A program made the position numbers and the translations under genes. A DNA stretch of 64,000 nucleotides from Anaerolineales bacterium (GTDB lineage Bacteria > Chloroflexota > Anaerolineae > Anaerolineales > UBA11579): assembly GCA_019454165.1 (NCBI GenBank), contig CP075367.1:503971-567970 (forward strand), given 5' to 3'. Positions 10,190 to 44,991 of the stretch are shown here, in pieces; within the stretch, counting starts at the first letter, position 1; every line of letters begins with the position of its first letter. Below the pieces are notes generated by a model. It was not told the DNA's origin and ran no database searches. It saw nothing but the letters and a program-made list of their open reading frames with translations.

Positions 10190-10214
10190 GCAGGAGTTGC
10201 GAAGCAACTCCTGC
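10190..10214. repeat. Perfect hairpin repeat in the 10080-10426 spacer
   Basis: GCAGGAGTTGC, loop GAA, GCAACTCCTGC. The core GAGTTGCGAAGCAACTC resembles the palindrome in each unit of the 52-bp array at 40212. The remaining spacer 10215-10426 has no gene, tRNA or riboswitch that I can recognise. Confidence 0.6.
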
Positions 10215-36611: not shown

Positions 36612-37022
36612 CCGTGTGATTCTGACCGGGTTTGAGAAACCACACCGGATCGCCGATGCCAGACCAGGGAAGAATCCTTGCTGGCACGTCTTCTATTCAG
36701 TGACTGTTTGTGACTTCACGCGCTGCGTGGATGAGGGTAAAAAAACCAAATTGCTTCGTCAGCGCTGCGTAGCAGCGCAATCCTCGCAATGACAAAGGGT
36801 GTTAAAGAGGGCGCAGCATGCTGCGCCCCTATATAAACCGTGTCATTCTGACCGGGTTTGAGAAACTACGCCAGGATCGCCGAAGCCGGATCAGGGAAGA
36901 AGACATGCTGGCATGTCTTCTATGCAGTGTTGATTTTTTGGCTTACCAAGATGCCTTTGTGGGAAAGCACCAGATTGCTTCGTCAGCGCTGCATAGCAGC
37001 GCAATCCTCGCAATGACGGGTA
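36612..37022. repeat. Two diverged copies of a ~180-bp dispersed repeat with palindromes
   Basis: Copies begin at 36612 and 36838 (226 bases apart) with CCGTGT(G/C)ATTCTGACCGGGTTTGAGAAAC and end near 36792 and 37022 with CAGCGC, then AATCCTCGCAATGAC. The ends GTCATTC and GCAATGAC make inverted termini. A perfect 20-bp palindrome GGGCGCAGCATGCTGCGCCC (36809-36828) lies between them, and GAAGACATGC/GCATGTCTTC (36899-36920) inside copy two. No gene is in 36606-37084. Confidence 0.75.
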
Positions 37023-37993: not shown

Positions 37994-39320
37994 GGGCTCT
38001 GATCTTGGTCTTGGCGCCTTCTGCGTTGCCGCGGCCCACACCGTAATAGGTGAAGCCCAGGTTGCGCATGATGTCTGGCTGGTAGATGTTGCGGCCATCC
38101 AGTAAAACCGGCTGCTTCATGCTGTCACGCACGCGGGCCAGGTCCAAATTCTTGAATTCGTTCCATTCGGTGGCCACCAACACCGCGTCCACGCCTTCGG
38201 CCAGGGCATAGGCGTCTTTGGCCATCGCCACGCCGGGCAGCACGCTGCGGGCCACATCCATGGCTACCGGGTCGTAGCCGCGCACGGTGGCGCCGGCCGC
38301 TTGCAGTGTGGCGGCGATATCAATGGACGGCGCATCGCGCATATCGTCTGTGTTGGCTTTGAAGGCCAGGCCCAGCAGGCCGATGGTCTTGCCCTGCAGG
38401 CCGCCCAACATCTCATCCAGCTTTTGGACGATGGCGTTGCGGCGGGCTGTGTTGACTTCCATCACGGAGTTGAGGATACGCGTGTCCACACCCATTTCAT
38501 CCCCCATGAAGGCGAGGGCTTTCACGTCTTTGGGGAAGCACGAGCCGCCGTAGCCAAGCCCGGCTTCGAGGAACTGCTTGCCGATACGGGCATCGAAGCC
38601 CATCCCGGCGGCGACCTCTTTGACGTCGGCGCCGAGGCGCTCGCAGATGTCGGCGATCTCGTTAATGAAAGAGATCTTGGTGGCTAGGAAGGCGTTGGAG
38701 GCGTACTTGATCATCTCGGCCGTGCGCAGGTCCGTGATCACGATGGGGGCGCGCAGGGTCAGGTGCAGCTGGGCCACTTTGTCGGCGGCCTCGCGGCTGG
38801 TGGAGCCCAGCACTGTGCGGTGCGGGTTCATGAAATCGGCGATAGCAACGCCCTCACGCAGGAATTCGGGGCAGGAGACCACCCAGAACTCGATCGGGGT
38901 CGGCTGGGCCTCGCGCACGATCTCGGCCACCCAGTCGCCCGTGCCCACGGGCACGGTCGACTTGTTGATCACGACCAACGGGGCGGTCATGTTCTGGGCG
39001 ATGCTGCGGGCGGCCGCGGCCACGTACTTGAGGTCAGCCTCGCCGTCCGAGCCGGAGGGCGTGCCCACGCAAATGAACACGAATTCGCTGTCTTGCAGGG
39101 CGTCTTTGTAGGAGGTGGTGAAGCTCAGGCGGCCGGCGGCCACATTGCGCTTAACCAGCTCCTCCAGGCCGGGCTCATAGATGGGCATTTCGCCGCGCTT
39201 CAGGCCGGCGACGCGGTTCTCATCCACATCCAGGGCGATGACCTGGTTGCCCAGGTCGCTAAAGCAGGCTGCGGTCACCAGACCCACATAGCCTACGCCG
39301 ATAACAGTGATCTTTCGCAT
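37977..39320 (-). CDS. UDP-glucose/GDP-mannose dehydrogenase family protein (UDP-glucose 6-dehydrogenase)
   Basis: A 447-residue dehydrogenase that makes UDP-glucuronate or a similar sugar acid from an NDP-sugar with two NAD+. The N-terminal Rossmann fold is [20 protein letters not shown], and the catalytic Cys261 lies in [12 protein letters not shown]. Other blocks are [36 protein letters not shown] and the C-terminal UDP-binding domain. ATG at 39320 has GGAGG upstream. UDP-glucuronate would feed surface polysaccharides. The methyltransferase gene follows in the same operon. Confidence 0.93.
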
Positions 39321-39387
39321 TCGGGGTGTGCCTCCAAAGTTACGGGTGAATAATAACACCCGCCTCACTTCGCCGTTTGCCGCCGCG

Positions 39388-40200
39388 ATGAGCATGCAGA
39401 AAGGGTACGATCTTCGCCAAGTGAGGCGGCAATACTACCTGATAGCAGGGTTGATTGCTGTACTCCTCCTGGGGGCATGCGGGGGGCGTAGTCCTGAGCC
39501 CGCGCCTACGCTTGAGGTGGTGCCTACGGCTACCGCCGTGCCTGCGCCCACCAGCGAACCGCAGCCCACGCCTACAGAAACCGCCATCGCCCTGAGCCCG
39601 ATCTGCTCGCCGCTGGCCGAGCATGAGATCGCCACACTGCTGAGCCTGTACCTGACCCAGCCGTTCATCCCGCCCCAGGGCGCCAACAAGGAGACCGGCC
39701 ACCACGGGCTCGACTTTGCCTATTACAGCGGCGGCCCCACCGGCGGGCACATCAACGGCACGCCGATCCAATCCATGCTGGATGGGGTCGTGGCCGGCAT
39801 GGGCTACAACGCCGTGTATGGCTATTACTTGATCACTGAGACGCCGTTCGCACTGTTGCCTGCGGAGCTGGCCGAGCATTACGAAGCAGGCGCGGACGAG
39901 TCGTTGTATATGCTGTACGGGCATATGCAGCAACCTGCGCCGCTGGCGCAGGGGGATACGGTGACCTGCGGCCAGGTGGTCAGCTATGTAGGCAATTCGG
40001 GCAGCCAGCAATTTTCCTCTGACCCTCATCTGCATATCGAAACGCGAGTGGGCGCGGCGGGCCAACGCCTGGCGGAGACGGCCTACTACACAGCGGATGC
40101 CACCGAAGCGCAGAAGGCGGAGTATTTGCGCTGGCGCACCAGCGATGAGTTTAGGCTGATGGATCCCACAATTCTGTTGGTCTACACACTGAGGGAGTAG
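39388..40200 (+). CDS. M23-family peptidoglycan hydrolase lipoprotein
   Basis: A 270-residue lipoprotein. The signal [13 protein letters not shown] ends in a lipobox, then a Pro/Thr-rich linker of about 40 residues. The zinc peptidase domain (LytM type) starts about residue 95: HHGLDFAYY carries the first His and Asp ligands and [11 protein letters not shown] the last His-x-His. Such enzymes cut peptide crosslinks in peptidoglycan or are inactive activators of amidases; the metal residues here are intact. I use ATG 39388 (ATG 39394 is equally possible); an open stretch before it runs into the divergent gene. Confidence 0.85.
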
Positions 40201-40211
40201 CCTGCCTCTTT

Positions 40212-40524
40212 CATATCCGTGCGGGAGAGTTTGCGAAGCAAACTCCAAGCGCTTAGCTGTTTGCATATCCGTGCGGGAGAGTTTGCGAAGCAAGCTCCAA
40301 GCGCTCGGCTGCTTGCATACCCGCGCGGGAGCGTTTGCAAAGAAAGCTCCAAACGCTTAGCTGTTTGCATATCCGTGTGGGAGAGTTTGCGAAGCAAGCT
40401 CCAAGCGCTTAGCTGTTTGCATATCCGTGCGGGAGAGTTTGCGAAGCAAACTCCAAGCGCTCGGCTGTTTTGCATATCCGTGCGGGAGAGTTTGCGAAGC
40501 AAACTCCAAACGCTCGGCTGCTTT
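40212..40524. repeat. Six-copy tandem array of a 52-bp hairpin repeat
   Basis: Units start at 40212, 40264, 40316, 40368, 40420 and 40473. Each is CATATCCGTG, CGGGAGAGTTTGCGAAGC, AAACTCC, AAGCGCTTAGCTGTTTG or a near variant; unit three is the most diverged. Each contains the palindrome GAGTTTGCGAAGCAAACTC. There are no spacers, so it is not a CRISPR. Two open frames exist only because the unit lacks stops in two directions. It fills most of the 369-base gap before hutU. Confidence 0.93.
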
Positions 40525-40534
40525 TGCCGAGCGT
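40510..40534. terminator. Hairpin at the end of the 52-bp array
   Basis: ACGCTCGGC, loop TGCTTTT, GCCGAGCGT. A stable stem at the array end, without a T-run; it may end or protect transcripts from the M23 gene or the array. Confidence 0.45.
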
Positions 40535-40569
40535 AGTAAACTGGCCTTATCCCACGGTAAGGACCCGGC

Positions 40570-42225
40570 ATGAGCTCACCCCGAGTACTCCGCGCCCCGC
40601 GCGGCCCCCAGCTGACTTGCAAGAACTGGCAGATCGAAGCGGTCTACCGCATGCTGCACAACAACCTGGACCCCGAGGTGGCCGAGCGCCCCGAAGACCT
40701 GGTGGTGTACGGCGGCCGCGGCCAGGCGGCCCGCAGTTGGGAAGCGTTCGACGCGATTTTGGAAACGCTGCGCACGCTGGAGCCGGATGAGACCCTGCTG
40801 GTGCAGTCGGGCAAGCCGGTGGCCGTGTTCCGCTCGCACACGGATGCGCCACGCGTGCTGATCGCCAACTCCAACCTGGTGCCGTACTGGGCTACCCAGC
40901 ATCACTTTGATGAGCTGGCCGCCAAGGGGCTGATGATGTACGGCCAGATGACAGCCGGCTCGTGGATCTATATTGGCACGCAAGGCATCTTGCAAGGCAC
41001 CTATGAGACGCTGGGCGCGCTGGCGCGCCAGCGTGGCTGGGGCTCGCTCAAGGGCAAGTTCGTGCTCACTGCCGGCCTGGGCGGCATGGGCGGCGCCCAG
41101 CCGCTGGCCGTCACCATGAACGAAGGCGTTGGCCTGGTGGTGGAGGTGGACCCGGCCCGCGCCAAGCGCCGCCAGGAGATCGGCTATGTGGATGATGTGG
41201 TCGATACGCTGGAAGAGGCCATGACCCTGGTGGAGGAGCATGTCGCCAAGGGGCAGCCGCGCTCGATCGGGCTGATCGGCAATGCGGCCGAGATCTTTCC
41301 GGAATTGTTGCAGCGTGGCGTGGTACCGGATGTGGTCACCGACCAGACCCCGGCCCACGACCTGCTGGCCTATATCCCCGCCGGCATGAGCCTGGCGGAG
41401 GCGGAGGCGCTGCGCAGCAGCGACCCCGCCGAGTTCGAGCGGCGCTCACAGGCCAGCATGGCCGCCCATGTGGAGGCCATGCTGGGCTTTCAGCATAAAG
41501 GCAGCGAGGTGTTCGACTACGGCAACAACCTGCGCCAACGGGCGCTGGAGTACGGCGTCAAGAACGCCTTCGACTTCCCCGGGTTCGTGCCTGCCTATAT
41601 CCGCCCGCTATTCAGTGAGGGCAAGGGCCCGTTCCGCTGGGTGGCGCTGAGCGGCGACCCTGAAGATATCTACAAGACTGACGCAGCCATCAAGCAGCTC
41701 TTCCCCGAAGATGCGCATTTGCACCGCTGGCTGGATATGGCCCGCGAGCGCATTCCCTTTCAGGGCTTGCCGGCGCGCATTTGCTGGCTGGGCTACGGCG
41801 AGCGCGCCAAGGCCGGTCTGCGCTTCAACGAGATGGTAGCCAATGGCGAGCTGAGCGCGCCGCTGGCGATCGGGCGGGATCATTTGGATTCCGGCTCGGT
41901 GGCCTCGCCCAACCGCGAGACCGAGGCGATGAAGGACGGCACCGACGCGGTCAGCGATTGGCCGATCCTCAACGCGCTCATCAACGCTGTCAACGGCGCC
42001 ACCTGGGTCTCGTTCCATCACGGCGGCGGGGTGGGCATCGGCTACAGCCAGCATGCCGGCCAGGTGATCGTGGCGGACGGCACGCCGGAGGCGGCCGCCC
42101 GCCTGGAACGCGTGCTGACCAGCGACCCCGGCATGGGCGTGGTGCGCCACGCCGATGCCGGCTACGACGAGGCGTTGGCCGCGGCTAAGCGCCACGGCAT
42201 CAAGATGCCGATGCTGGGCCGCTAG
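40570..42225 (+). CDS. hutU: Urocanate hydratase
   Basis: A 551-residue urocanase, which adds water to urocanate in histidine breakdown with a tightly bound NAD+. Strong family blocks include [50 protein letters not shown] and [15 protein letters not shown]. The catalytic Cys405 sits in [18 protein letters not shown] precedes the ATG. No hutH, hutI or hutG is near, so the pathway is split. An MFS transporter gene follows after nine bases and may be cotranscribed. Confidence 0.97.
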
Positions 42226-44675: not shown

Positions 44676-44991
44676 GGAGGGCTGTAAGCCATAAGCTGTA
44701 AGCTGTAAAGCGGTCAGCTTCAGTGGTCAGTGCCTGGGCTATTTAGAACCAGATTGCTTCGTGCGCCGCTACGCGGCGCCTCGCAAGGGCAAGTCGGCTT
44801 CCCGTGTCATCCTGAGCGGGTGCTAAAAGACGCCACCAGATCGCCGGCCTGCTCCAGCGAAGGATCCCTATTGGCACATCTTCTATGCAGCGCGCGTTTG
44901 TCAGCGTATTTGCTTTTAGCTGACGGCTGATAGCTGATAGCTGATAGCTGACAGCTATCAGCCAAGAGCTCTATGCTAGAATTTTTATCCC
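44676..44991. repeat. Mosaic of dispersed-repeat fragments and a GCTGATA microsatellite
   Basis: The gap has AAGCTGTAAGCTGTAAAG (44690s), a fragment ACCAGATTGCTTCG...CCTCGCAAGGG (44749-44790) shared with the 36612 repeats, then GTGTCATCCTGAGCGGGTGCTAAAAG...GCACATCTTCTATGCAGCGCG (44804-44897), matching the 47071 elements, and four GCTGATA/GCTGACA units ending in a hairpin. No gene is visible. TAGAAT at 44977-44982 is nine bases before the next ATG. Confidence 0.7.

What the first reader, a model, noticed from the sequence alone, without database searches (positions are those of the whole stretch)
40212..40524. Six tandem copies of a 52-bp hairpin-forming unit
The array has exact 52-base spacing (one 53), and each unit holds GAGTTTGCGAAGCAAACTC. 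It has no spacers and no neighbouring transposase. The loss of symmetry is not random: units two and four carry a G in one arm. It could be a protein-binding array, an RNA-processing site, or a recombination hot spot. The same core appears singly at 10190 and 32908.
Basis: partly seen in the sequence, partly recalled or inferred. Interest (0 to 1): 0.6.

Follow-up and report, generated by a model that had tools for sequence, protein, structure and literature searches.

The report
Small minisatellite grown from one palindrome
A stretch between two genes of an uncultured Anaerolineales bacterium holds six tandem copies of a 52-base unit built around a small DNA hairpin; relatives with one copy or none suggest it grew by tandem duplication and is drifting, so it is most likely an ordinary bacterial minisatellite, although its seed hairpin belongs to a lineage-specific set of small palindromes that deserves its own look.

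Summary
The array is real: six contiguous units (52, 52, 52, 52, 53, 52 bp) at 40212-40524, between an M23-peptidase gene and hutU (urocanate hydratase). Only three units carry the exact core; two have a G.U-type change and one is broken. The claim that the core recurs at 10190 and 32908 is not confirmed.

The full array is unique in its 2.24-Mb genome. A sister species has six units at the same place (87% identity), two others have one, six have none: 0 -> 1 -> 6 on the gene tree. Units diverge at about the rate of silent sites. Pairing is broken in four of six sister-species units with no compensatory change, while the hutU promoter block next to it is nearly unchanged. Best explanation: a minisatellite made by slippage between TTTGC microrepeats around one hairpin, with no array-specific function shown.

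The seed palindrome, GAGTTTGC-N3-GCAAACTC, is one of a set of intergenic palindromes. In this genus its three-base loop is GNA on one strand (the very stable DNA mini-hairpin loop) at every exact site found. It occurs in 15 of 24 genomes of the family and in none of 77 genomes of sister families. It fails the REP tests made.

The parts
39307..40200 (+). upstream gene: M23-family peptidase with lipoprotein-like N-terminus (true start probably downstream of 39307, since the sister species has stops in the first part of this frame)
   Evidence: Pfam PF01551, E 1.1e-11; orthologues in all 11 genomes of the genus
40212..40263 (+). unit 1 (exact palindrome core at 40227-40245)
40264..40315 (+). unit 2 (core 40279-40297, one G in right arm, T.G pair)
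40316..40367 (+). unit 3 (core 40331-40349, two pairs broken; GAAAGCT variant shared with sister species)
40368..40419 (+). unit 4 (core 40383-40401, one G in right arm)
40420..40472 (+). unit 5, 53 bp (exact core 40435-40453)
40473..40524 (+). unit 6 (exact core 40488-40506); the unit that aligns in place with the single copy of two related species
40510..40534 (+). second inverted repeat ACGCTCGGC-TGCTTTT-GCCGAGCGT; left arm inside unit 6, right arm outside the array; conserved in four species
   Evidence: sequence, relatives, DNA fold -11.5 kcal/mol, z -6.1
40537..40542 (+). inferred -10 box of hutU (TAAACT; TAAACT or TACACT at the same place in relatives)
   Evidence: conservation in G008, G007, G005, G001, G009, G010, G012; not called by the consensus scan
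40570..42225 (+). downstream gene hutU, urocanate hydratase
   Evidence: Pfam PF17391, PF01175, PF17392

Best explanation
The array is a small intergenic minisatellite (VNTR-type locus). One copy of a short, lineage-specific palindrome sat between the M23-peptidase gene and the hutU promoter in an ancestor, as it still does in two related species. In the common ancestor of this species and its sister, a ~52-bp segment holding that palindrome was duplicated and expanded to several units, now six. The likely mechanism is replication slippage or unequal recombination between short TTTGC direct repeats, helped by hairpin formation (inferred). Since then the units have drifted roughly neutrally and in the sister species most hairpins are decaying. 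Array-specific function is most likely none; at most the locus adds hairpins to the 3' untranslated end of the peptidase transcript or spacing upstream of hutU. Shown: array, locus, copy-number history, drift, loss of pairing. Inferred: the slippage mechanism and the lack of function.
For: Copy-number series at the same M23-hutU junction: G000 6, G008 6, G007 1, G005 1, and 0 in G001, G002, G003, G004, G009, G010. On the M23 tree the two six-unit species form a 100/100 clade, with the one-unit G007 next to it (91/93, below the tree's own threshold for a well-supported fork). The whole array is found once in the own genome and in only one of 60 relatives. Divergence from the sister is about 12-13% plus indels in the array, against 10% (hutU) and 22% (M23) at four-fold sites, while the ~55-bp promoter block next to the array has one substitution. 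Fourteen-unit alignment: no pair with changes on both sides, three pairs broken in some units. A variant unit shared by both species shows that an array of several units predates their split. TTTGC lies at the 5' edge in the sister (CTCTTTGCAGAT) and at the 3' edge in both (GCTTTTGCCGAGCG). Other intergenic tandem duplications of hairpin-bearing units occur in the same genome (127 bp x3, 208 bp x2.3, 224 bp x1.8), and the same palindrome sits in tandem duplications elsewhere in G011 (89 bp), G001 (140 bp) and G002 (91 bp).
Against: Copy number is the same (six) in two species that differ at about 7% of bases, which is steadier than expected of an unstable VNTR. The array abuts a conserved inverted repeat at the hutU promoter, and every unit repeats its left arm in recognisable form, so a regulatory role is not excluded. 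The + strand of the whole array folds better than shuffles (z -3.75), although any array of palindromes would. No strain-level or expression data were available.
Confidence: 0.75

Rival explanations
1. A regulatory array: each unit carries a binding half-site (CGCTCGGCTG, the left arm of the inverted repeat at the hutU promoter) and/or the palindrome as a full operator, so that repeats upstream of hutU titrate or concentrate a regulator.
For: The left arm (CGCTCGGC or CGCTTAGC) is present in every unit in recognisable form; the inverted repeat 40510-40534 is conserved in four species just upstream of the inferred -10 box. The dispersed palindrome has constant arms and a free centre in the pattern search, like an operator.
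Against: Six species with the same gene pair have no unit at all. Units drift at a roughly neutral rate. Right arms are changed in half of the sister's units. Many different arm sequences share the loop rule, which points to hairpin form rather than one recognised sequence.
Confidence: 0.12
2. An RNA element: transcribed from the M23 gene, the hairpins form a 3' barrier that stabilises or terminates that mRNA (REP-like role).
For: The array starts 11 bases after the M23 stop codon; + strand RNA fold z -3.75, 0 of 100 shuffles as good; G changes in units 2-4 keep U.G pairing on the + strand. Intergenic GNA palindromes lie more often between convergent (12) than divergent (6) genes, and the GNA strand is the sense strand in 14 of 21 co-oriented cases.
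Against: 14 of 21 is not significant. No terminator-like site was found. There is no covariation, and pairing is broken in four sister units. Six relatives do without. No Rfam match.
Confidence: 0.08
3. A mobile short palindrome (REP/REPIN- or SDR-like element) that inserted repeatedly next to itself.
For: The palindrome is dispersed in the own family (15 of 24 genomes) and absent from 77 genomes of sister families.
Against: Units are contiguous, in one orientation, each with the same 30-odd bp of flank, which is duplication rather than insertion. Only a handful of copies per genome. The only Y1-transposase-like domain of the genome lies inside an unrelated long ORF without flanking palindromes. 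No GTAG/CGTC tag.
Confidence: 0.05

Closest known systems
Bacterial minisatellites / VNTR loci (non-coding satellites with long repeats, surveyed in PMC6749651)
   Same: Short non-coding tandem array, unit over 30 nt, period not a multiple of 3, unique to one place in the genome, units diverged from each other
   Different: Strain-level length variation not shown; six units in both species that have it
REP / REPIN palindromes (GTAG and CGTC superfamilies, PMC3733652; REPINs, PMC3116915)
   Same: Small intergenic palindrome, dispersed in a genome, sometimes reiterated in tandem with flanking DNA (PMC3733652 describes such clusters)
   Different: No GTAG or CGTC tag, a handful instead of many copies, no REP-associated (RAYT) transposase found, array not made of inverted doublets
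d(GCGNAGC) GNA-triloop DNA mini-hairpins (from memory; papers found use GCGAAGC as an extraordinarily stable mini-hairpin)
   Same: Core of the palindrome is GC-GAA-GC; in this genus the loops of dispersed palindromes follow G-N-A on one strand
   Different: Known as a physical-chemistry motif; I know of no report of it as a loop rule for a dispersed palindrome set in Chloroflexota

Membership tests
Bacterial minisatellite / VNTR | head-to-tail copies of a unit of about 10-100 bp | tested here: met
   period 52, 5.8 copies, 89% match
Bacterial minisatellite / VNTR | copy number varies between related genomes | tested here: met
   6, 6, 1, 1 and six genomes with 0 at the orthologous site
Bacterial minisatellite / VNTR | copy number varies between strains of one species | not testable with these tools
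REP / REPIN | GTAG or CGTC tag at one end of the palindrome | tested here: not met
   no consistent tag next to the 43 dispersed palindromes read nor the array units
REP / REPIN | high copy number in the genome | tested here: not met
   own genome: 6 exact-arm sites, of which 3 are in the array
REP / REPIN | associated RAYT (Y1_Tnp) gene with flanking palindromes | tested here: not met
   one PF01797 match inside a long unrelated ORF, no flanking palindrome
CRISPR array | constant repeats separated by unique spacers | tested here: not met
   units contiguous and similar over their whole length
Structured RNA family | match to a known family or covariation in the helix | tested here: not met
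   only a tRNA in the window matches Rfam; no double-sided pair changes among 14 units

The most novel reading that the evidence does not exclude
The array is the amplified form of one member of an undescribed, lineage-specific set of intergenic palindromes in this Anaerolineales family. What is kept is not the arm sequence but a perfect hairpin whose three-base loop is G-N-A on one strand; such hairpins are maintained or spread as single-stranded DNA (or RNA) structures, can flip their loop, and seed tandem arrays.
Probability: 0.25. Interest if true: 0.5.

Novelty: new member of a known kind. Interest (0 to 1): 0.27.

Why it matters
As an array it is an ordinary minisatellite, useful mainly as a clear case of 0 -> 1 -> 6 amplification caught across species of one genus. 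The by-product matters more. Intergenic palindromes of this genus follow a G-N-A triloop rule (25 of 36 in the sampled own genome against about 6 expected), and one arm sequence is confined to this family. That makes it testable whether very stable GNA mini-hairpins are selected, are favoured by mutation, or are moved around in a little-studied phylum.

Tried and rejected
Array in plasmids or phages: no match. Array core in viral contigs: no match. Rfam: nothing but a tRNA in the window. Sigma-70 promoter and terminator scans around the array: nothing. RAYT hypothesis: the only Y1_Tnp match is a domain of another protein. Strand bias of the GNA loop relative to transcription: 14 sense against 7 antisense, not significant. 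The idea that the palindrome is enriched inside tandem duplications: recurrent (three further loci), but not shown to be more frequent than in intergenic DNA at large. Coding reading of the array: a 146-aa reverse ORF crosses it, but the 52-bp period shifts frame each unit; rejected.

Full report
Observation. The array exists as described in outline. Tandem Repeats Finder gives 40212-40514, period 52, 5.8 copies, 89% matches. Reading the units gives six, spaced 52, 52, 52, 52 and 53. The core GAGTTTGC-GAA-GCAAACTC is exact in units 1, 5 and 6, has an A-to-G change in the right arm in units 2 and 4, and is broken at two pairs in unit 3. It never appears in shuffled sequence. The two single copies claimed at 10190 and 32908 are not copies: 10190 is a shorter-armed relative (GGAGTTGC-GAA-GCAACTCC) with the same GCGAAGC centre, and 32908 is a different hairpin.

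Setting. The array lies 11 bases after the stop codon of an M23-family peptidase gene and ends about 45 bases before the start codon of hutU, both on the + strand. The last unit runs into a second inverted repeat, ACGCTCGGC-TGCTTTT-GCCGAGCGT (40510-40534), followed by TAAACT. TAAACT or TACACT is found at a similar distance from hutU in relatives with no array, so I take it as the -10 box. That is inference from conservation; the consensus scan calls nothing. The genome is one contig of 2.24 Mb; named relatives with the same gene pair are Anaerolineales MAGs (ACE_CHL7, DTUCFX4, TGS_CHL6).

History. The complete array occurs once in the genome, and among 60 relatives only G008 has a long match, 308 bp at 87%. 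At the same M23-hutU junction G008 has six units, G007 and G005 have one, and G001, G002, G003, G004, G009 and G010 have none; in G001 another gene stands between the two. On the M23 tree G000 and G008 are sisters (100/100), G007 is next (91/93, just under the tree's threshold for a well-supported fork), and the place of G005, G001 and G002 is unresolved. The single unit in G007 and G005 takes the place of unit 6. The variant GAAAGCT, in unit 3 here and units 3-5 in G008, shows that the array already had several units before the split. Two independent assemblies with six units argue against an assembly artefact.

Mode of growth. In G008 the sequence before unit 1 is CTCTTTGCAGAT, and after the last unit it is GCTTTTGCCGAGCG. 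The duplicated segment is therefore bounded by TTTGC on both sides, as expected for slippage between short direct repeats about 50 bases apart (inference). The palindrome inside folds as DNA at -7.1 kcal/mol (z -3.3), which could help such slippage. Other intergenic tandem duplications of hairpin-bearing units occur in the sampled genome, and the same palindrome is inside tandem duplications at other loci in G011, G001 and G002.

Constraint. Between G000 and G008, 8.8 kb around the locus is 93% identical; four-fold sites differ by 10% in hutU and 22% in M23; the array differs by about 12-13% plus several indels, while the promoter block next to it differs at one base. In an alignment of all 14 units no base pair shows a change on both sides; five units lack pair 24-30, three lack pair 18-36 and one lacks pair 19-35. 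In G008 four of six units have at least one broken pair, one has a one-base deletion and one a wobble. This is what drift looks like, and it speaks against a selected array of binding sites or RNA hairpins, though it cannot exclude a weak or recent role.

The seed palindrome. Searching GAGTTTGC-NNN-GCAAACTC with free loop in 101 genomes gives sites in 15 of 24 genomes of the own family, none in 77 genomes of other families of the order, and none for the reversed control pattern. Nearly all sites read were intergenic. In the own genus all loops at exact sites are G-N-A on one strand, i.e. GAA, GCA, GTA, GGA or their complements; in other genera of the family the loops are more mixed. A second palindrome, TACTCGGC-NNN-GCCGAGTA, confined to the genus, follows the rule at most sites. 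Without reference to arm sequence, intergenic perfect triloop palindromes without A/T-run arms in the sampled own genome have GNA loops in 16 of 22 (first sample, two of them array units) and 9 of 14 (second sample), against one sixth expected; genic ones do not depart from expectation there (9 of 34, 12 of 51). G005 shows the excess both in intergenic (11 of 23) and in genic palindromes (16 of 41). Genes were called by a crude longest-ORF rule. Some stretches of the second samples were chosen to include known sites, so those counts are not fully independent; removing the four known arm types leaves 6 of 11 in the second G000 sample and 8 of 19 in G005. Two-mismatch relatives in the genus are often compensatory (CAG..CTG, GAGTTCGC..GCGAACTC). 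At one orthologous pair (window 10190 against G008) the arms next to the loop are the same and the loop is GAA against TTC, as if flipped.

Comparison. As an array it is a non-coding bacterial minisatellite of the kind surveyed in PMC6749651. As a palindrome it resembles REPs in size, intergenic place and occasional tandem reiteration (PMC3733652, PMC3116915), but it fails three defining tests: no GTAG/CGTC tag, few copies, no RAYT. It is not a CRISPR array or a known RNA. The GNA-loop rule recalls the d(GCGNAGC) mini-hairpin, known to me from the physical-chemistry literature; the papers found here only use it as a stable hairpin.

Verdict. Ordinary in kind, well documented in history: a small minisatellite grown from one palindrome, most likely without its own function. 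The part worth following is the palindrome set and its loop rule, not the array.

Noticed in passing
own genome samples L075-L094, L150-L169 and window; G005 samples L170-L189: Intergenic perfect palindromes with three-base loops have the loop G-N-A on one strand far more often than expected (25 of 36 in the own genome, one sixth expected), with many different arm sequences.
   Followed up: partly
window 10190-10214 against G008 L146 near 15801: Same palindrome arms (GGAGTTGC..GCAACTCC) at the orthologous place, but the loop is GAA here and TTC in the sister species, as if the loop had been inverted.
   Followed up: no
G000:C1:499140, 1250737, 1689121, 2011301, 2011380: A second dispersed palindrome, TACTCGGC-NNN-GCCGAGTA, present in 10 of 11 genomes of the genus and in none of 30 genomes outside it.
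   Followed up: partly
window 36612-37017: Tandem duplication (period about 224 bp) of an intergenic mosaic repeat; related pieces lie at 44747-44901 and in the sister species.
   Followed up: no
L089:7311-7691 (G000:C1:1577311-1577691): Three tandem 127-bp copies that begin inside the 3' end of a gene and repeat its last codons and the following palindrome.
   Followed up: no
L095 (G000:C1:1119045-1119386): A Y1-transposase-like (PF01797) domain match inside a 459-aa open frame that does not look like a transposase gene.
   Followed up: no
L030 and L032, M23-hutU junction of G007 and G005: About 500 bp of extra intergenic DNA with a mosaic repeat (CTGTCATTGCGAGGACGTGAAACGGCGTAGCCGTTGAGCG) that is absent from the six-unit species.
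   Followed up: no
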